Part shown: piece after piece, positions 5,589 to 40,694 of the stretch | Position numbering within the stretch: the stretch's first letter is position 1 | How the letters are laid out: every line of letters starts with the position of its first letter | Assembly: GCA_003989085.1 (NCBI GenBank) | Contig: RXIV01000006.1 | Span: forward strand, 124,001-188,000 | DNA length: 64,000 nt | Source of the DNA: Candidatus Competibacteraceae bacterium | GTDB lineage: Bacteria; Pseudomonadota; Gammaproteobacteria; Competibacterales; Competibacteraceae | Reading direction: 5' to 3' | Program-made: the position numbers and the translations under genes | The notes under the pieces: generated by a model | The model's input: the letters and a program-made list of their open reading frames with translations, nothing else | Told to the model about the DNA's origin: nothing | Database searches by the model: none

Positions 5589-8500
5589 CTAGCAAATCGT
5601 AGGCGCCTTCCCGTTTGCCGCCCCCAGCCGGATCACGACCTGATGAACCCGACCATCCCGGAACAGGGGAATGCAGGCTACGCCCTTTTCAATCACGCCC
5701 GGTAAGTCATCGATCTCTACCGCGATTACCTGTTCGGCGCTGCCAGCGGGATTCTGCGCCGCAATGTCATAAACCGCGTCGTGGCCTGCTAACCGGTAGC
5801 GCAAGCGAAAGCCCGGCCAGTGATCGGGAATGCACGGGCGCAGCCGCAGGATGTGATCTTCGACCACTTCCAGACCGAGAATAGATTCCAACGCCACCCG
5901 CAACATCCAGCCAGATGCTCCGGTATAGCCGCTCCAGCCGCCGCGCCCGATATGCGGGGTTGCGCCGTAGACATCGGCGGCGACCATGAACGGTTCCAGC
6001 CGGTAGAGGGCCGCTGCCTCCGGGGTCAAGGCGTGATGGATTGGATTGAGCATTGTCAGCAGCTTTAGCGCCCGGTCGCGCCGGCCCAGCGCCACCAGCG
6101 CCCGCACCACCCACAATGCGGCATGCGTGTACTGGCCGCCGTTCTCCCGCACTCCGGCGACATAGCCCTTGATATAACCCGGATCATGCGGCGTATCGGC
6201 GAATGGTGGGGTCAGCAGCCGGATCAATCCATCCGTTTCCGAAATCAGACGCCGTTCGACCGCATCCAGCGCCGCTTCGGCCCGGCCCCACGGCGCGGCC
6301 TTGGCAAGCACTGCCCAGGCTTGGACCAAGGCATCAATCTGACCTTCATCACCTGCGGCGGAGCCGAGTATCGTCCCGTCGTCATACCAGGCCCGTCGAT
6401 ACCAATCACCATCCCAACCCTGCTGATTCAACGCCTCGACCAGATCGCGGCGGAACGTAGCGTAGCGCCGGGTGCGATTATGGTCGCCGTGCTGGCCGCA
6501 GACCGGGATGAACTCGCCGAGCGTCGCGTACAGGAAAAACCCCAGCCAGACGCTTTCGCCACGCCCCTCGCGCCCGACCCGGTTCATTCCGTCGTTCCAG
6601 TCGCCAGTTCCTATCAGCGGCAGACCGTGAACGCCTTGCGTCAACGAACAATCCAGCGCCCGGCAACAGTGCTCATACAAACTGGCGGTCTCGCCGGAAT
6701 TTTCCGGGGTCAGGAACGCTTCGTCTTCACCAGATTTCAGTGGCCGCGCTTGCAGAAACGGCACGGGTTCGCCGAACAGGCTCCATTCCCCAGTCACGCG
6801 GGCATAGAATGCAGCCAGGTAAGGCAGCCAGAGCAGATCATCGCTGCACCGGCTGCGAATCCCGCGCCCGCCGGGCGGATGCCACCAGTGGAGCACGTCG
6901 CCTTCAACAAATTGATGGGCGGCGTGCAGCAACAGTTGTTGGCGGGCGAGTTGCGGGTCGTGGTAAATCAGTGCGGCGGCGTCCTGCAACTGATCGCGGA
7001 AGCCGAACGCCCCGCCCGATTGGTAGAACGCTGAGCGGCCCCACAACCGGCAACTGAGGGTTTGGTAGGCCAGCCAACCATTGACCATCAGATCCAACGC
7101 CGGGTCTGGCGTCTCGATCTGCACGGCGTCTAGCCAATCCCGCCAGAATGCCCGAACCTGAGTCAACGCTGCTTCAATGGCGCCGTCTTCACGATAACGG
7201 TGGATCAGCCGCCGCGCCTCGTCCCGATCCGCTGCTTCGCCGAGCAAAAAGGCGTAGTCGACTGACTCGCCCGGTTCCAGGGTCAAGGTCACTTGTAATG
7301 CGAAGCAGGGATCGAGCTTTGCGCCAGTCCGGCCACTCAGCGCCTCACGGGATAGCGCTGCTGGTCGCGCCGGGCCGCCGTGTTGACCAATGAACTCGGT
7401 GCGGTCGCCGGTGATGTGAACCGGAATGCTATCGGTTGGCGAGCCGGCGGCGAACGCAATCCGCCCAGCAAATTCGCCGTTGCCGTTCTCGGCCAGCAAC
7501 GCACCCGTTGCAGCGTCCAGTTCGATGGTCAGTTCCGCTGAATGGTCACCCGGCAACACGCCCAGCACCAGGCGGGTATAGCTGAACAGCGCCAGTCGGC
7601 GGGGCTGGTCACTGAAATTGCGCAGTCGAATCCGGGTAATTTTGACCGGGTCTTCACGTGGGACGAACAGCCAAACCTCCTGTTCCAAGCCCTGACTGAG
7701 CGAGCGATAGTAGCTGTAGCCAAAGCCGTGTCGGATTTCATAAGCGACCGGCTGGGGCATCGGGCCAGGCAGCACCGACCAGCTTGTGCCGTCCGCTTCA
7801 TCGCGCAGATACAGCGCTTCGCCGTGCGGATCCAGCACCGGATCGTTGAACCACGGGGTCAGGCGGTTTTCGCGGCTGTTCTGGCTCCAGGTATAACCTG
7901 CGCCGGTCTCGCTGCTGAGGAATCCGAATTGCGGATTGGCGATGATGTTGACCCAAGGCTGCGGGGGCAATTTCAGCCGACCGTCGGCGTTCGGTTCAAG
8001 GCGAATCACATACTCGTCGCCAGTGGCGTTGAACCCACCCAAGCCGTTCCAAAACTGGAATGAATTTTTCTCCTGCTCGGGGAATCCTTCCGGCTGGGCC
8101 TCCCCCTTTTGAAAAAGGGGGGCAGGGGGGATTTTGGCAAAGCGTGAGGGGGCTGTTAGCGGCGGAGAGTCCACCTGACGACTCGCTGCCGCTTGGAACG
8201 CCTCGTCAACTTTGGTGACTGTTTGATACGCTGTCGCCAGATCCAGCGCGATTTCCCGTTCCGAAGCTGCACCGAGCAGGAAGGTGAATTGCGCTGTGTT
8301 GCCTGCCGCCAGTTCGACCACCCGCCGCAAACTGATGATGGGATCGAGGACATTGCCGACCGTGCCGGACAGCGGTTCCGATTCCACCAGTGCCCGTGGC
8401 GCAGTCAGCGAGTAGCTCCGGCCAATGAAGCGAGCACGGTCGGTTTCGTACTGGACGCCCTCTCCTTTTACGAAAGGGTGGGCCGGGAGGATTGCGCCAA

Positions 8501-37122: not shown

Positions 37123-38649
37123 CTAAAGGTCGGGTGTGTGGTGTCGCGCCTGCCGGGTCGGACGAATCGGTGTTCTAACAGCCTTGCCGACCGGAAGCGT
37201 TTCTCGCTCCAACCGCAGGAATATCGGGCAGCTTTTCATGCCGCTTTGGTGAAAGTCCTGGGTCAACGCTTCCCTCGCTGTCGTTTCTGCTACAGCCAGC
37301 ATTTCAACCAGTCCCCGATAAAGCAAGTCAAACAGGCGCTCCAGTGCCAACTGATGGGTCTGCCCAGTTGTGGCAAACAACCAGTCGCTCAACGTCATGA
37401 ACCGCCCGAACGGATCACTGCCCAATAACAGCGGGCGGGTCTGGTGGAATCGCCCAGAGTTGCCGATCAAATCCCAGTAACGGGCAAACCGCTCCAACCG
37501 CCGCAGCATGGCAAAGTCCAGCAGTTGCGAAGACAGCAGGTTATAGGGCGAGTGTGGATTAAAGCGCAGATCGAAGGCAGCGGTATGGCGAATAATGGGA
37601 GTTCCACGCAACCGTTTCAGAATGCCGATCTGGATTTCATGCGGATCGAGCGCCACCAAGCGATTAAAGCCGTTGGCAAAACTGCCTAGATCCTCGCCCG
37701 GCAATCCGGCGATCAAGTCAGCGTGTAAATGAGCATGGGTGTTGCGCCTCAGCCAGATAAGATTTTCCTCAGCTTTATCATTATCCTGCTTACGACTAAT
37801 CAATGCCTGTACTACTGGATTAAAAGTCTGAACCCCGATCTCGAATTGCAGCGCCCCCGGTGGAAACCGGACGATTAGTGTTTTCAGGGCATCCGGTAAC
37901 TGATCAGGAATTAGCTCAAAGTGCAGAAATAGCCGTTCGTCAAGTCGCTCAAGAAAGAACTCAAGAATCCGCGCCCCGATTTTACTGTTAAGATTAAAAG
38001 TGCGATCCACGAACTTGAAATGGCGTACACCATGATGATAAAGATAAGCCATTTCATTGAGAAACAGATCCAATGGAAAAGGCCAAGCGGTTTTATCCAG
38101 CGCCGACAGGCAAAACTCGCAGCGAAACGGACAACCGCGTGAAGCTTCGACATAAATCAGTCGGTGGGCAATGTCTTCTTCATTGTAGAAACGGTAGGGC
38201 GATGCTAATGATTCCAGCAACGGCGGTTCAGCGATAATGACCTTTTCCACCGGCAGGTCGCCATTGAGCCATTGTCGGCATAACTGCAAGAAGGCCAAAT
38301 CGGCCTGACCGGTGATGAGATAATCAGCCAGCCCCACTATCGGTTGATTTTCCCATTCATAACTCACCTCCGGACCACCCAGCACGATTAACACCTCAGG
38401 CCGCGCCTGTTTAATCAAGGCAACGATTTGGGTGGTTTCCGCTACATTCCAGATATAAACACCAAAGCCGATGATCTGCGGCTGTTCAGCCAGCAGCCGT
38501 TCGACAATATCCAGCGGGCGTTGGGTGATGATGAACTCGCGGATCACAGCGTCAGCCTGCAATTCGTCCAGATTGGCAAACAGATAACGCAGCCCGAATG
38601 ATGAGTGAAAATAGCGGGCGTTCAGGGTTGAAAGGATAATCGCAGGCAT
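37123..38649 (-). CDS. B12-binding-domain radical SAM protein
   Basis: The 508-residue protein has an N-terminal cobalamin-binding-type Rossmann domain (about 1-140, with IIGFGVYIWN and VLGGPEVSYE) and a radical SAM core with the cluster motif CPFRCEFC near residue 175. A long C-terminal domain follows that I recall as DUF4080. The classical DxHxxG cobalamin motif is not seen in the first domain, so B12 binding is uncertain. The start is the canonical MPAIILSTLNARYFHSSFGLRYL. It begins 11 nt after a strong terminator that ends the Y-RNA array, and no good ribosome-binding site is seen. Substrate unknown. Confidence 0.8.
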   Translation of the reverse strand: MPAIILSTLNARYFHSSFGLRYLFANLDELQADAVIREFIITQRPLDIVERLLAEQPQIIGFGVYIWNVAETTQIVALIKQARPEVLIVLGGPEVSYEWENQPIVGLADYLITGQADLAFLQLCRQWLNGDLPVEKVIIAEPPLLESLASPYRFYNEEDIAHRLIYVEASRGCPFRCEFCLSALDKTAWPFPLDLFLNEMAYLYHHGVRHFKFVDRTFNLNSKIGARILEFFLERLDERLFLHFELIPDQLPDALKTLIVRFPPGALQFEIGVQTFNPVVQALISRKQDNDKAEENLIWLRRNTHAHLHADLIAGLPGEDLGSFANGFNRLVALDPHEIQIGILKRLRGTPIIRHTAAFDLRFNPHSPYNLLSSQLLDFAMLRRLERFARYWDLIGNSGRFHQTRPLLLGSDPFGRFMTLSDWLFATTGQTHQLALERLFDLLYRGLVEMLAVAETTAREALTQDFHQSGMKSCPIFLRLERETLPVGKAVRTPIRPTRQARHHTPDL

Positions 38650-38660
38650 GTTGGACCACT

Positions 38661-38699
38661 AAAAAAACGGAATGCGAATGATTAACCCGCATTCCGTTT
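38661..38699 (-). terminator. Rho-independent terminator of the RNA array
   Basis: On the minus strand AAACGGAATGCG pairs with CGCATTCCGTTT (12 bp) around an 11-base loop, and T residues continue after the stem. It lies 11 nt after the last Y-like RNA and fixes the direction of transcription of the array. Confidence 0.92.
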
Positions 38700-38710
38700 A
38701 TTGATAAAAG

Positions 38711-38836
38711 GTGGCGACAAGAAATGGCGAGACGTTCCTTGCTCTACCGACTGAGCTACAGCCGCTTTTCAGTGACTGACGGGACTCGAACCCGTGACCG
38801 AGGCATTATTAATGTAGTCCCGCGAGCATTCGCCAC
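38711..38836 (-). ncRNA. Y RNA with permuted tRNA-like domain (YrlA type)
   Basis: This is the last of four tandem RNAs, about 126 nt. Ends GTGGCGA and TCGCCAC pair. Next to them are the conserved strands CGAATGC (5') and TTTCTTG (3'), then a stem CGGGAC/GTCTCG with one A-C mismatch. The interior reads, in transcript order, a T arm (ACGGG-TTCGAGT-CCCGT, 38779-38795), a closed acceptor-like hairpin (CAGTCAC-TGAAAA-GCGGCTG), and a D arm (GCTC-AGTCGGTA-GAGC, 38741-38756). The 3' half of a tRNA thus precedes the 5' half, joined at the acceptor end, and the Ro-type stem takes the place of the anticodon arm. This is the architecture described for bacterial YrlA RNAs bound by Ro60 homologues. It is not a functional tRNA. 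Confidence 0.85.
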
Positions 38837-38847
38837 TTAACCAGAGC

Positions 38848-38954
38848 GGCGACGACAAGGAATGGCGAGAGCGGAAACCCCGTATTAAACGGGGGCAGGA
38901 TGGCGATCCTGCTCTTCCTAAGGGTGCCATGTACTCCCGTCGGCATTCGTCGCC
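38848..38954 (-). ncRNA. Y-like RNA 3 with two internal hairpins
   Basis: About 107 nt. GGCGACGA pairs with TCGTCGCC. The conserved strands CGAATGC and ATTCCTTG flank a stem GACGGGAG/CTCTCGCC with the invariant mismatch. The interior has two hairpins (GCAGGAT-CGCC-ATCCTGC and CCCCGT-TTAAT-ACGGGG), enclosed by GGAA/TTCC, so a three-way junction is likely. It is shaped like the tRNA-like RNA but lacks a T-loop consensus. Confidence 0.75.
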
Positions 38955-38965
38955 ATCAGCGAAAA

Positions 38966-39027
38966 GCTGTGACAAGGAATTAACGAGACATGATTTCAAG
39001 TCATGTAGTCCCGTTGGCATTCGCAGC
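38966..39027 (-). ncRNA. Y-like RNA 2, short form
   Basis: About 62 nt, the shortest of the four. GCTGCGA pairs with TCACAGC (one G-U). CGAATGC and ATTCCTTG follow, then the stem AACGGGAC/GTCTCGTT. The end is a single hairpin CATGA-CTTGAAA-TCATG, with a seven-base loop identical to the anticodon loop of tRNA-Ser(UGA). It looks like the Ro-binding stem alone. Confidence 0.75.
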
Positions 39028-39038
39028 CTAAATCAAAA

Positions 39039-39124
39039 CCGCCCGAACCAGACAAGGGAATTAACCGAGAGAAGGGTATGCTTAGCAGGCATGTACTCCC
39101 GGTCGAGCATTCCAGCTCGGACGG
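39039..39124 (-). ncRNA. Y-like RNA 1
   Basis: About 86 nt, the first RNA after the TROVE stop codon (16 nt). CCGTCCGAGCTGGA pairs over 14 positions with TCTGGTTCGGGCGG, including several G-U pairs. GGAATGC and ATTCCCTTG are the conserved strands, and CCGGGAG/CTCTCGG is the inner stem. The terminal hairpin has the loop CTGCTAA, like the anticodon loop of tRNA-Ser(GCU). The many compensating G-U pairs in the basal stem speak for selection on structure. Confidence 0.75.
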
Positions 39125-39140
39125 CAAAACCTTGGTTTGA

Positions 39141-40694
39141 TTATACCTCCACCGCTTCGATTTCGCGCACCCAATGATCGCCGCCCAACTGTCCGGCGGC
39201 GAACCGCGCCAGCACCTCGAATACCGCATCCGAGAATCCGCCCACGTTCAGCACATCCTCGCGGGTCTGCGCCTGGGTGGTCCCGTAAGGCTGAAGATCA
39301 ATGCAAACCAGCCCGGCTTTCGGGTTGCGCTGCCGGAAAATTTCCCACTGCTTCATGGTTTCCGTGCCGCGCCCGCGCTGCGGATCGGCCCATGATTCAT
39401 TGTCGGAAACGTAGATCACCAGATCGCCGACCGCTTTATCTTTATTCAGCTTCGCCAGCGGTCGTCCGCAATTGGTTCCGCCGCCACAGAATGCCGCCAG
39501 GGTCTTGGCCTGGGTCAACACACTGTCGCGCCGATTGAGTTGCACGGTGTGAACCTCGGTATCAAAGGCGAGAATTCTGGTCGCCGGATTTTTCGCCGAA
39601 AGGGCCGCAGCGACCAGCGCCGCTACATCCACGCAGCGCACTTTGGAAGTAGCGCCCTTGCGCTGGCCGGTGATCGGCGAGGCCATCGATCCGGACACGT
39701 CGAGCAGCACATAAACCTGCCCCGGCAATTCCGGCACGTTCTCCAAAGCGACCTCCAGCGCATCCTGCAAGGCGTCGCGGACGATCTCCGGCACCCCTTC
39801 GCCGGTCATGGCATAGGCGCTGAGCAACTGGTACGGAAACACCCGCGCTCGCCGGATCGCTGCGGGATCGCGCAGCCGTTCCGCAATCCGCTGGGCCATG
39901 CCGCCAACTTTGAACACCTCGTGCCGGGCAAACGTGTTGAGATTCATCCGGGTCATCTGCCACGGTGCCTGACAGGCGATAGCGACCCAGTGCTGTGGTT
40001 GCAAGGGTAATGCGGTGAGCAGCTCAAACGGCACATCGGGGACTGGTGCTTCAACATCGTTTTTGAACTGATCCAGCGCCTTGATCACGTCGGGCAGCAA
40101 CGCGGCGTCATGCGGCTTGCCGATTAACCAGGCGTAAAACGCGGCCCGCTCCGGGGTTTCCGGCTTGGGATGCACCATTTTCAGCACGTCAGCCAAAGAC
40201 GGATCGTTGCCCACCGAGGCGCTCAGCAATTGCGCATCGGTGCGGCTGTTCAGCCAGCCTTGCACCAGTCGCTTGGGCCGGCTGCCCAGCGATTTGCGTC
40301 CGACCACGCCGGAACGCAGGATTTGCACAAAGTTGCGCAGCATTCGCCCATTGTCCACGACCTTGACGAAGGTCGACTCCAGAAAATCCGGGGCATGCTG
40401 CGCCAGCCACGCAGTAAGCAAGGCGGGCATATCCTTCATCTGCCCCCGTCGCCGGGCATAAATCGCCGCCTTGGCGACGAATGCGGGTTCTACTGCCGCG
40501 CACAACGCCAGCACGGTATCCAGTTGCATTTCGGCATTAGCGTAGTACGTCGCATTCAGGCAGCCGGTCGCGGTGTATTGCGCCAGCGCCGCCTTGGGCG
40601 ACAGAGCGTAGGCCTTGCCGCCGGCTTCGTTTAGAGTGTCGGTGGCTGGCGGCAATCGGCCAGATTGAGTTTTGAAGAGCTGCTTGTTAGCCAT
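39141..40694 (-). CDS. TROVE-domain protein (bacterial Ro60/Rsr)
   Basis: Ro60 homologues are ring-shaped RNA-binding proteins that hold misfolded RNAs in their central hole and Y RNAs on the outside; in Deinococcus, Rsr works with RNA exonucleases. The 517-residue protein has a TROVE domain (about 15-310; it includes AKAAIYARRRGQMKDMPALL, NGRMLRNFVQILRSG and SRPKRLVQGWL) and a von Willebrand A domain with the MIDAS residues DVSGSM near residue 331, GGGTNC and SDNESW. Length is normal. Directly downstream on the same strand lie four Y-like RNAs and a terminator. No rtcB or rtcA gene is nearby, unlike many enterobacterial rsr loci. Confidence 0.92.
   Translation of the reverse strand: MANKQLFKTQSGRLPPATDTLNEAGGKAYALSPKAALAQYTATGCLNATYYANAEMQLDTVLALCAAVEPAFVAKAAIYARRRGQMKDMPALLTAWLAQHAPDFLESTFVKVVDNGRMLRNFVQILRSGVVGRKSLGSRPKRLVQGWLNSRTDAQLLSASVGNDPSLADVLKMVHPKPETPERAAFYAWLIGKPHDAALLPDVIKALDQFKNDVEAPVPDVPFELLTALPLQPQHWVAIACQAPWQMTRMNLNTFARHEVFKVGGMAQRIAERLRDPAAIRRARVFPYQLLSAYAMTGEGVPEIVRDALQDALEVALENVPELPGQVYVLLDVSGSMASPITGQRKGATSKVRCVDVAALVAAALSAKNPATRILAFDTEVHTVQLNRRDSVLTQAKTLAAFCGGGTNCGRPLAKLNKDKAVGDLVIYVSDNESWADPQRGRGTETMKQWEIFRQRNPKAGLVCIDLQPYGTTQAQTREDVLNVGGFSDAVFEVLARFAAGQLGGDHWVREIEAVEV

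What the first reader, a model, noticed from the sequence alone, without database searches (positions are those of the whole stretch)
38661..40694. Ro60 homologue with an array of four tandem Y-like RNAs
Seen: directly after the TROVE gene (16 nt from the stop) the minus strand has four non-coding units. Each is closed by a basal stem and has nearly invariant strands CGAATGC on the 5' side and TTCCTTG or a close variant on the 3' side, and an inner stem with a conserved A-C mismatch; a strong terminator follows. Known: bacterial Ro60 (Rsr) genes are often beside one or two Y RNA genes, and Ro binds the closing stem of Y RNAs. Inference: this is a Ro-Y cassette in which one protein can be loaded with four different RNAs, each perhaps recruiting a different partner.
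Basis: partly seen in the sequence, partly recalled or inferred. Interest (0 to 1): 0.95.

Follow-up and report, generated by a model that had tools for sequence, protein, structure and literature searches.

The report
Ro60 array of tRNA-part mimics
Beside its Ro60 gene this bacterium has four back-to-back predicted Y RNA genes that share one stem, predicted to bind Ro60, but differ in their tips; two tips carry the exact anticodon-loop sequences of the bacterium's own serine tRNAs, so the array would likely let one Ro60 ring attract different tRNA-handling enzymes.

Summary
The observation largely holds. Behind a TROVE/vWA (Ro60/Rsr) gene lie four tandem Y RNA-like units, 8-10 nt apart, with a strong terminator-like hairpin after the last. 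Unit 4 is Rfam YrlA (72.7 bits; cut-off 69); units 1-3 match no Rfam family. The shared stems covary strongly across 76 related Ro loci. In Competibacteraceae the 5' motif occurs in 10 of 39 genomes, exactly the 10 with a substantial Ro gene. Arrays are the rule in this Ro clade: 73 of 74 loci have at least two units, 55 at least four. Heads fall into recurring classes: short hairpins (usually first), T-arm plus acceptor-like hairpin, and the tRNA-elbow (YrlA) head (usually last). New here: many short heads look like anticodon stem-loops. In 20 of 64 a hairpin loop equals a real tRNA anticodon loop (shuffled mean 0.17); in the window, unit 1 has the host's tRNA-Ser(GCU) loop and unit 2 its tRNA-Ser(UGA) loop. 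This is clear in Acidobacteria and some Proteobacteria, weak or absent in Verrucomicrobia, Planctomycetes and viral contigs. I read the array as a dismantled tRNA mounted on Ro60, likely bait or tethers for tRNA-acting enzymes. Expression, Ro binding and partners are untested. New variant of a known kind.

The parts
39141..40694 (-). Ro60/Rsr-like protein, 517 aa, TROVE + vWA with a DxSxS MIDAS-type motif (motif name recalled)
   Evidence: Pfam vWA_Ro60 57.6 bits, TROVE 32.7; phmmer to 2nvo Deinococcus Rsr E 7.9e-22; AlphaFold2 pLDDT 84.5; Foldseek best 13 hits are Ro60/Rsr/TROVE chains, query TM 0.58-0.74
39038..39124 (-). unit 1, short-head Y RNA-like
   Evidence: basal and inner stem kept in 9 Competibacteraceae rows with one broken cell; MFE fold shows both stems and the apical hairpin
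39078..39092 (-). anticodon-stem-loop-like tip of unit 1, ATGC-CTGCTAA-GCAT
   Evidence: loop identical to the anticodon loop of the host's own tRNA-Ser(GCT); hairpin in the MFE fold
38964..39029 (-). unit 2, short-head Y RNA-like; also present in sister genome L085
   Evidence: one C-A mismatch in the basal stem
38988..39006 (-). anticodon-stem-loop-like tip of unit 2, up to 6 pairs around CTTGAAA
   Evidence: loop identical to the anticodon loop of the host's own tRNA-Ser(TGA); hairpin in the MFE fold
38847..38955 (-). unit 3, T-class Y RNA-like
   Evidence: alignment A2, 27 rows, T-arm helix with both-sided changes at 5 of 5 pairs
38895..38912 (-). T-arm-like stem of unit 3 (GCAGG/CCTGC); its loop no longer fits the T-loop consensus
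   Evidence: against canonical T-loops in most other rows
38878..38894 (-). acceptor-like hairpin of unit 3
   Evidence: MFE fold; alignment
38708..38836 (-). unit 4, YrlA Y RNA
   Evidence: RF02553, 72.7 bits, cut-off 69, E 8.7e-15
38779..38795 (-). T-arm of unit 4
38741..38756 (-). D-arm of unit 4
38804..38814 (-). two-pair mini anticodon-loop-like hairpin of unit 4 (TTAATAA, not in the tRNA reference; TTGATAA, in the reference, in sister L085)
   Evidence: weak on its own
38665..38699 (-). intrinsic-terminator-like hairpin with T run

Best explanation
A Ro60 gene is followed by four tandem Y RNA-like units that share one covarying stem, predicted to dock on Ro60, while their tips resemble different parts of a tRNA, so the array would likely let one Ro60 ring present separate tRNA parts and thereby bait or tether tRNA-acting enzymes. 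Shown by sequence and comparison: unit 4 is YrlA, with T-arm, acceptor-like hairpin and D-arm. Units 1 and 2 have 7-nt loops identical to the anticodon loops of the host's tRNA-Ser(GCU) and tRNA-Ser(UGA), on stems that differ from those tRNAs. Unit 3 keeps a T-arm-like stem and an acceptor-like hairpin. Inferred: the array is transcribed with the Ro gene and processed to single RNAs, because the spacers are 8-10 nt, no promoter-like site was found and the strong terminator comes last. Each RNA takes its turn on the Ro ring by the shared stem. The elbow-type head would hold enzymes that read the tRNA body (as published for YrlA with tRNA modification enzymes, and for Deinococcus Y RNA with PNPase), and the anticodon-type heads would hold enzymes that act on anticodon loops: modifying enzymes, anticodon nucleases or the repair ligase. 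The most likely purpose is to bring such enzymes and Ro-bound damaged RNA together.
For: Basal stem: in 279 units whose 3' site was picked by a sequence matrix without looking at pairing (the matrix had been trained on sites first found with pairing), pair 4 forms in 96.4% against 45% with shuffled partners. Short-head alignment: 14 of 16 pairs have both-sided changes, covariation 0.726 against 0.186 shuffled and at most 0.173 slid. T-class alignment: 16 of 21 pairs. Motif in 10 of 39 Competibacteraceae genomes, the same 10 with a substantial Ro hit; control pattern 0. Anticodon loops: 20 of 64 short heads (window left out) have a hairpin of 3 or more pairs whose loop equals a real tRNA anticodon loop; 500 shuffles mean 0.17, max 4; reversed heads 0, reverse complements 1. 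Against the host's 41 tRNA loops alone: 15 of 64, shuffled 0.07, max 1, both controls 0. Seven-nt loops are the length most enriched (35 of 65 against 11; other lengths 7-19 against 9-13). Both window loops equal the host's own tRNA-Ser loops. Short, T and elbow heads all occur in 34 of 59 arrays against 18.4 with shuffled labels, 0 of 2000 reaching it. RtcB follows the array in L043, L046, L050, L051, L092 and L035. Host has PNPase and RtcB elsewhere.
Against: No expression, processing or binding data. Anticodon-like tips are not universal: exact tRNA loops in 12 of 18 Acidobacteria short heads, 4 of 5 other proteobacteria, 2 of 10 Competibacteraceae (both from sister genome L085), 1 of 8 Planctomycetes, 0 of 19 Verrucomicrobia, 0 of 2 Deltaproteobacteria, 1 of 2 others. 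In viral contigs only 3 of 24 (shuffled 0.07, max 2; reverse complement 1), and the looser pattern 4 of 24 with a shuffled maximum of 5. Three of nine Competibacteraceae unit-1 copies (L020, L023, L024) lack the anticodon pattern. Unit 3 of the window has lost the T-loop consensus. MFE folds of units 3 and 4 alone do not show the full consensus structure. No tRNA gene lies in the window and no RtcB among the six genes tested around Ro. Related sequences are not independent, and the label shuffle does not correct for descent. A terminator-like site inside unit 1 could end some transcripts early.
Confidence: 0.5

Rival explanations
1. Anticodon-nuclease decoys: the short heads are sacrificial copies of anticodon arms that soak up toxins or phage-triggered nucleases which cut tRNA anticodon loops; Ro60 stabilises them.
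For: Exact tRNA anticodon loops with different anticodons in different hosts, with turnover at one array position among close relatives (GCU, GCA-like, lost). tRNA arrays and RtcB beside Ro in Acidobacteria, a viral contig with 22 tRNA matches around Ro (L104). Competitive inhibition of an anticodon nuclease by YrlA was proposed in print (PMC7790460, passages).
Against: That paper detected no fragments of YrlA. No nuclease partner was identified in the window. Many arrays lack anticodon-like tips.
Confidence: 0.25
2. Redundant Y RNA paralogues: the array only raises Y RNA dose, and tRNA likeness of the heads is a decaying remnant of an ancestral tRNA-like head.
For: Several heads have decayed (window unit 3 T-loop; L020, L023, L024 unit 1). 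Elbow heads have mini anticodon loops at the same place (21 of 100 heads), a possible ancestor.
Against: The three head classes are kept together more than shuffled labels give (34 of 59 against 18.4), in a preferred order, and the best core match in a non-close locus has the same head class in 143 of 234 against 82.4 expected.
Confidence: 0.15
3. A structured 3' UTR: the units stay in the Ro mRNA and Ro binds them to regulate or stabilise its own message.
For: Unit 1 starts 16 nt after the stop codon, no promoter-like site found between, strong terminator after unit 4.
Against: Bacterial Y RNAs are described as noncoding RNAs in their own right (PMC7790460, PMC8394870, passages). In seven acidobacterial loci units also lie upstream of the Ro start, from about 0.1 kb on.
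Confidence: 0.1

Closest known systems
YrlA (RF02553), bacterial Y RNA with a tRNA-like domain
   Same: Unit 4 is a member: same Ro-side stem motif, T-arm, acceptor-like hairpin and D-arm.
   Different: Units 1-3 do not match the model. Of 82 five-prime blocks counted in 20 loci, 13 matches reach the Rfam cut-off. The one description of the head that I saw gives D, T and acceptor arms, without an anticodon arm (PMC8394870, passages).
Salmonella rsr-yrlBA-rtcBA RNA-repair operon
   Same: Ro gene followed by more than one Y RNA; RtcB follows the array in some relatives.
   Different: Two Y RNAs and rtcBA in one operon there (PMC7790460, passages); four Y RNAs here and RtcB on another contig.
Deinococcus radiodurans Rsr / Y RNA / PNPase (RYPER)
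   Same: Ro60 fold (2nvo is the second Foldseek hit) and a PNPase in the genome.
   Different: No evidence here that any unit tethers PNPase; protein 21% identical in the structural alignment.
Vertebrate Y RNA sets
   Same: One Ro60 served by several Y RNAs with a common stem and different loops (recalled).
   Different: Separate Pol III genes; heads not built from tRNA arms (recalled, not tested).

Membership tests
Ro60/Rsr (TROVE) protein | TROVE and Ro60 vWA domains over curated cut-offs | tested here: met
Ro60/Rsr (TROVE) protein | Ro60 fold (HEAT-repeat ring plus vWA) | tested here: met
   the best 13 Foldseek hits are Ro60/Rsr/TROVE chains, E 1.7e-18 to 5.4e-14, query TM 0.58-0.74; ring geometry not measured separately
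Ro60/Rsr (TROVE) protein | Binds Y RNA and misfolded RNA | not testable with these tools
   needs biochemistry
Ro60/Rsr (TROVE) protein | Conserved Y RNA-contacting residues | not tested
   no residue-level comparison with the Ro60-RNA structures was made
YrlA RF02553 | Covariance-model score over gathering cut-off, unit 4 | tested here: met
   72.7 bits against 69
YrlA RF02553 | Covariance-model score over gathering cut-off, units 1-3 | tested here: not met
   no match even at E up to 1; they share the Ro-side stem motif but are not filed as YrlA
Bacterial Y RNA (broad sense) | Encoded beside a Ro gene, with the conserved closing-stem strands and covarying stem | tested here: met
Bacterial Y RNA (broad sense) | Transcribed, and bound by Ro | not testable with these tools
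   no RNA or binding data
tRNA anticodon arm (mimicry, not membership) | 7-nt loop identical to a real anticodon loop on a stem of 3 or more pairs, units 1 and 2 | tested here: met
tRNA anticodon arm (mimicry, not membership) | Recognised by an anticodon-loop enzyme | not testable with these tools
   needs assay
tRNA | Detected as a tRNA gene | tested here: not met
   ARAGORN finds none in the window; no RF00005 match over cut-off in the window

The most novel reading that the evidence does not exclude
Ro60-Y RNA arrays are a dismantled tRNA: separate Ro-docking RNAs display the anticodon arm, the T-arm/acceptor minihelix and the elbow, so that a Ro60 ring can be fitted with bait for whichever enzyme attacks, modifies or repairs tRNAs, and the bait anticodon changes between hosts as the attackers do.
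Probability: 0.35. Interest if true: 0.9.

Novelty: new variant of a known kind. Interest (0 to 1): 0.72.

Why it matters
What bacterial Ro60 and its Y RNAs do is largely open; the tRNA likeness of YrlA is described, in what I could see, without the anticodon arm. If sister Y RNAs supply that missing arm, the Ro particle is tied to anticodon-loop biology (modification, toxin cleavage, RtcB repair) in a directly testable way. The arrays also show that the YrlA model alone misses most Y RNA-like units next to Ro genes in this clade (13 matches against 82 blocks in 20 loci).

Tried and rejected
A conserved A-C mismatch in the inner stem: rejected, present in unit 3 only. An N36 A/U bias of the anticodon-like loops, hinting at A37-modifying enzymes: 10 of 12 distinct loops against 34 of 67 in the reference, Fisher p 0.057, not claimed. 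The weak second YrlA hit in the host genome (29 bits) overlaps two tRNA genes and was set aside. Myxococcus phage Mx1 has a Ro (45% identity) but no full unit by this scan, nor have the Streptomyces and Mycobacterium phage Ro loci L108 and L109; their Y RNAs may be too diverged for the motif. Eight look-ups of the main Y RNA papers (Chen 2013 and 2014, Sim 2018 and 2020, Burroughs 2016, Wang 2018; some tried by two ids) failed as not held; what they say is recalled or taken from papers that cite them. I recall that Chen 2014 reported several Y RNAs per species, at least one of them tRNA-like, so multiplicity itself is not claimed as new.

Rows dropped and limits: alignment A1 used 42 of 54 non-redundant short-head units plus the window's two; A2 used 26 of 51 T-class units plus the window's one (longer or odd heads left out by me). 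The Ro alignment left out L033 (in-frame stop) and also L044, L077, L080, L081 and L104 from the list first tried. Of 308 five-prime blocks, 279 had a 3' site by the pairing-blind rule; the other 29 were not classed. A few far-off blocks (L064 at +1454, L062 at +1611, L092 upstream) may be false. The neighbour survey used 72 of the 93 ORFs listed. The tRNA-loop reference (93 loops, 255 tRNAs) holds tRNAs from the same acidobacterial loci; one search repeats the test with host tRNAs only. Searches used a stricter reference (83 loops, 225 tRNAs). Groups were assigned by me from the record titles; 'other proteobacteria' (L035, L044, L047, L070, L092) includes one record titled only 'proteobacterium'. 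An earlier count said that acidobacterial upstream units lie 1.7-2.3 kb from Ro with a gene between: that is wrong, distances there were counted from the end of Ro; most lie 0.1-0.7 kb before its start.
Full report
What is there. On the minus strand a 517-aa TROVE protein gene (39141-40694) is followed, 16 nt after its stop, by four units at 39038-39124, 38964-39029, 38847-38955 and 38708-38836, 8-10 nt apart, then a strong terminator-like hairpin with a T run at 38699-38665; a weaker terminator-like site lies within unit 1. The protein has Pfam vWA_Ro60 and TROVE domains over cut-off, its closest solved relative by sequence is Deinococcus Rsr, and its AlphaFold2 model (31-sequence alignment, pLDDT 84.5) has Ro60, Rsr and TROVE chains as its best 13 PDB hits, query TM 0.58-0.74. 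Unit 4 is YrlA at 72.7 bits. Units 1-3 match no Rfam family.

Host. The nearest named relatives are Candidatus Contendobacter and other Competibacteraceae. Ro is patchy: 13 of 39 family genomes have a protein hit; 10 are substantial, three are short or weak. The pattern GAATGCN{3,8}GGGASTACAT occurs 30 times, in exactly those 10 genomes and in none of the other 29; every match is beside Ro or, in two draft genomes, on the contig that holds a piece of Ro. The host has PNPase and RtcB on another contig.

Is it general? A scan of one genome per species gave 76 related Ro loci from Competibacteraceae, other Proteobacteria, Acidobacteria, Verrucomicrobia, Planctomycetes and others. A strict pattern gave 164 hits downstream of Ro on its strand, 19 upstream, 0 in the Ro gene, and 1 on the other strand. 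A matrix scan trained on these loci gave 308 five-prime blocks on the Ro strand against 3 on the other (window included). Of 74 loci with at least 700 nt downstream, counting both sides of Ro, 73 have two or more blocks, 69 three or more, 55 four or more; four is the commonest number. Rfam's YrlA model reaches its cut-off for 13 matches in 12 of 20 loci, where the scan counts 82 blocks.

Structure. With the 3' site picked by sequence, 279 units have a basal stem that pairs at 85-96% over pairs 1-5 against 45-76% with shuffled partners. The inner stem, not used for choosing units, pairs at 87% against 66% (best of three offsets in both). On the short-head alignment (44 rows) 14 of 16 pairs have changes on both sides, covariation score 0.726 against 0.186 shuffled; on the T-class alignment (27 rows) 16 of 21 pairs, 0.477 against 0.168. 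In nine Competibacteraceae the basal and inner stems of unit 1 are kept with one broken cell, while the tip varies.

Head classes. By the rules the 279 heads are 107 elbow-type (T-arm plus D-arm), 69 short (40 nt or less, no T-arm), 62 T-arm without D-arm, 36 other, 4 permuted with the D-arm split, and 1 with a D-arm only. In the 59 arrays of three or more full units, 34 hold short, T and elbow heads together; shuffled labels give 18.4, at most 30 in 2000 tries. In downstream arrays of three or more, the first unit is short in 36 of 54 and the last is elbow-type in 38 of 54. The core of a unit is most like a unit of the same head class in another, not close, locus in 143 of 234 cases, 82.4 expected, which speaks for old, specialised paralogues. 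These tests do not correct for shared descent. The window's array reads short, short, T, elbow.

Anticodon loops. Among 65 distinct short heads, hairpins with four or more pairs and a 7-nt loop occur in 35 against about 11 in shuffled heads; other loop lengths exceed shuffling only slightly or not at all. Loops that fit the anticodon-loop pattern (U33, purine 37) on stems of three or more pairs occur in 30 of 65 against 2.0, at most 7. Against 93 distinct loops from 255 tRNAs, with Y units masked, 20 of 64 short heads carry an identical loop; 500 shuffles average 0.17 with a maximum of 4; reversed heads give 0 and reverse complements 1. With the host's 41 tRNA loops alone, which are independent of those loci, it is 15 of 64, or 13 of 62 without the sister genome; shuffled 0.07, maximum 1, both controls 0. 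The host's own tRNA-Ser(GCT) has loop CTGCTAA, as in unit 1, and its tRNA-Ser(TGA) has CTTGAAA, as in unit 2; the stems differ from those tRNAs, so these do not look like recent tRNA fragments. In relative L018 the unit 1 tip has a compensatory stem change around the same loop. Elbow heads often start with a two-pair mini version: 21 of 100 against 0.98, at most 6. The pattern is uneven by group: exact loops in 12 of 18 Acidobacteria heads, 4 of 5 other proteobacteria, 2 of 10 Competibacteraceae, 1 of 8 Planctomycetes, 0 of 19 Verrucomicrobia, 0 of 2 Deltaproteobacteria and 1 of 2 others. A held-out viral set (63 non-redundant of 73 loci) had 84 blocks on the Ro strand and 7 on the other, two or more units in 22 loci, none in 33, and exact loops in 3 of 24 short heads (shuffled 0.07, at most 2; reverse complement 1). 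So anticodon mimicry is well supported for the acidobacterial and some proteobacterial arrays, including this window, and is not a general property of short heads.

Neighbourhoods. Of 60 loci scanned, 13 have six or more tRNA calls within the fetched stretch, all acidobacterial by title, class or family name. RtcB was found in 7 of 72 ORFs at 18 loci; six of them were placed: directly after the array in L043, L046, L050 and L051, which also have tRNA arrays, and in the proteobacterial L092 and L035. The window has no tRNA gene, and no RtcB among the six genes tested.

Function. [quoted passage not shown] YrlA is a substrate of DusA and TruB, and its head is described as D, T and acceptor arms (PMC8394870); TROVE proteins are called a platform for RNA repair with a tRNA-like partner (PMC7824862). 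My inference is that the array extends this: different units show different tRNA parts on the same Ro dock, to tether or bait enzymes acting on those parts. Which enzymes, and whether the units are bait or tethers, is not shown. Three searches for prior reports of anticodon arms in Y RNAs listed nothing that says so by title or abstract (20 of 67 listed, 4 of 4, 11 of 11); most of these papers were not opened, and the library lacks the main Y RNA papers.

Noticed in passing
L032, L034, L036, L037, L039, L043, L045, L046, L050, L051, L053, L058, L086 (upstream of Ro): Acidobacterial Ro/Y loci sit beside arrays of 6 to 15 tRNA calls on the same strand (one call in L045 is a Y unit and one a doubtful tmRNA); in seven acidobacterial loci (six of these and L083) Y-like units lie upstream of Ro as well, most 0.1-0.7 kb before its start.
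   Followed up: partly
L043, L046, L050, L051, L092, L035 (downstream of the array): RtcB RNA ligase gene right after the Y array; in all 7 RtcB and 1 RNA 3'-phosphate cyclase among 72 neighbouring ORFs.
   Followed up: partly
L043 (about 2 kb before the Ro start), L051, L086, L065 at +552: Four heads look like a tRNA permuted with the opening in the D-loop, with an extra hairpin before the T-arm, unlike YrlA.
   Followed up: no
L102 and L103 (viral contigs of 102 and 259 kb): Phage-like contigs with a Ro gene and eight Y-like 5' blocks in a row.
   Followed up: partly
L104 (viral contig, 18 kb): Ro gene with three Y-like blocks inside a dense array of 22 RF00005 matches.
   Followed up: no
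L107:6187 (Myxococcus phage Mx1): A Y-like string (GGAATGC, 6 nt, GACGTACA) missed by the scan, just before an annotated tRNA-Gly at 6284; perhaps a diverged Y RNA.
   Followed up: no
L018:4775, between the second and third unit: The 3' Ro-side motif CTTGT is expanded into nine tandem copies.
   Followed up: no
L033:877-2430: The Ro reading frame contains one stop codon although six Y-like blocks follow.
   Followed up: no
window 37123-38649 (-): A B12-binding radical SAM protein gene starts just after the terminator; by eye, L020, L022, L023 and L024 have other sequence there, so it is likely not part of the cassette.
   Followed up: partly
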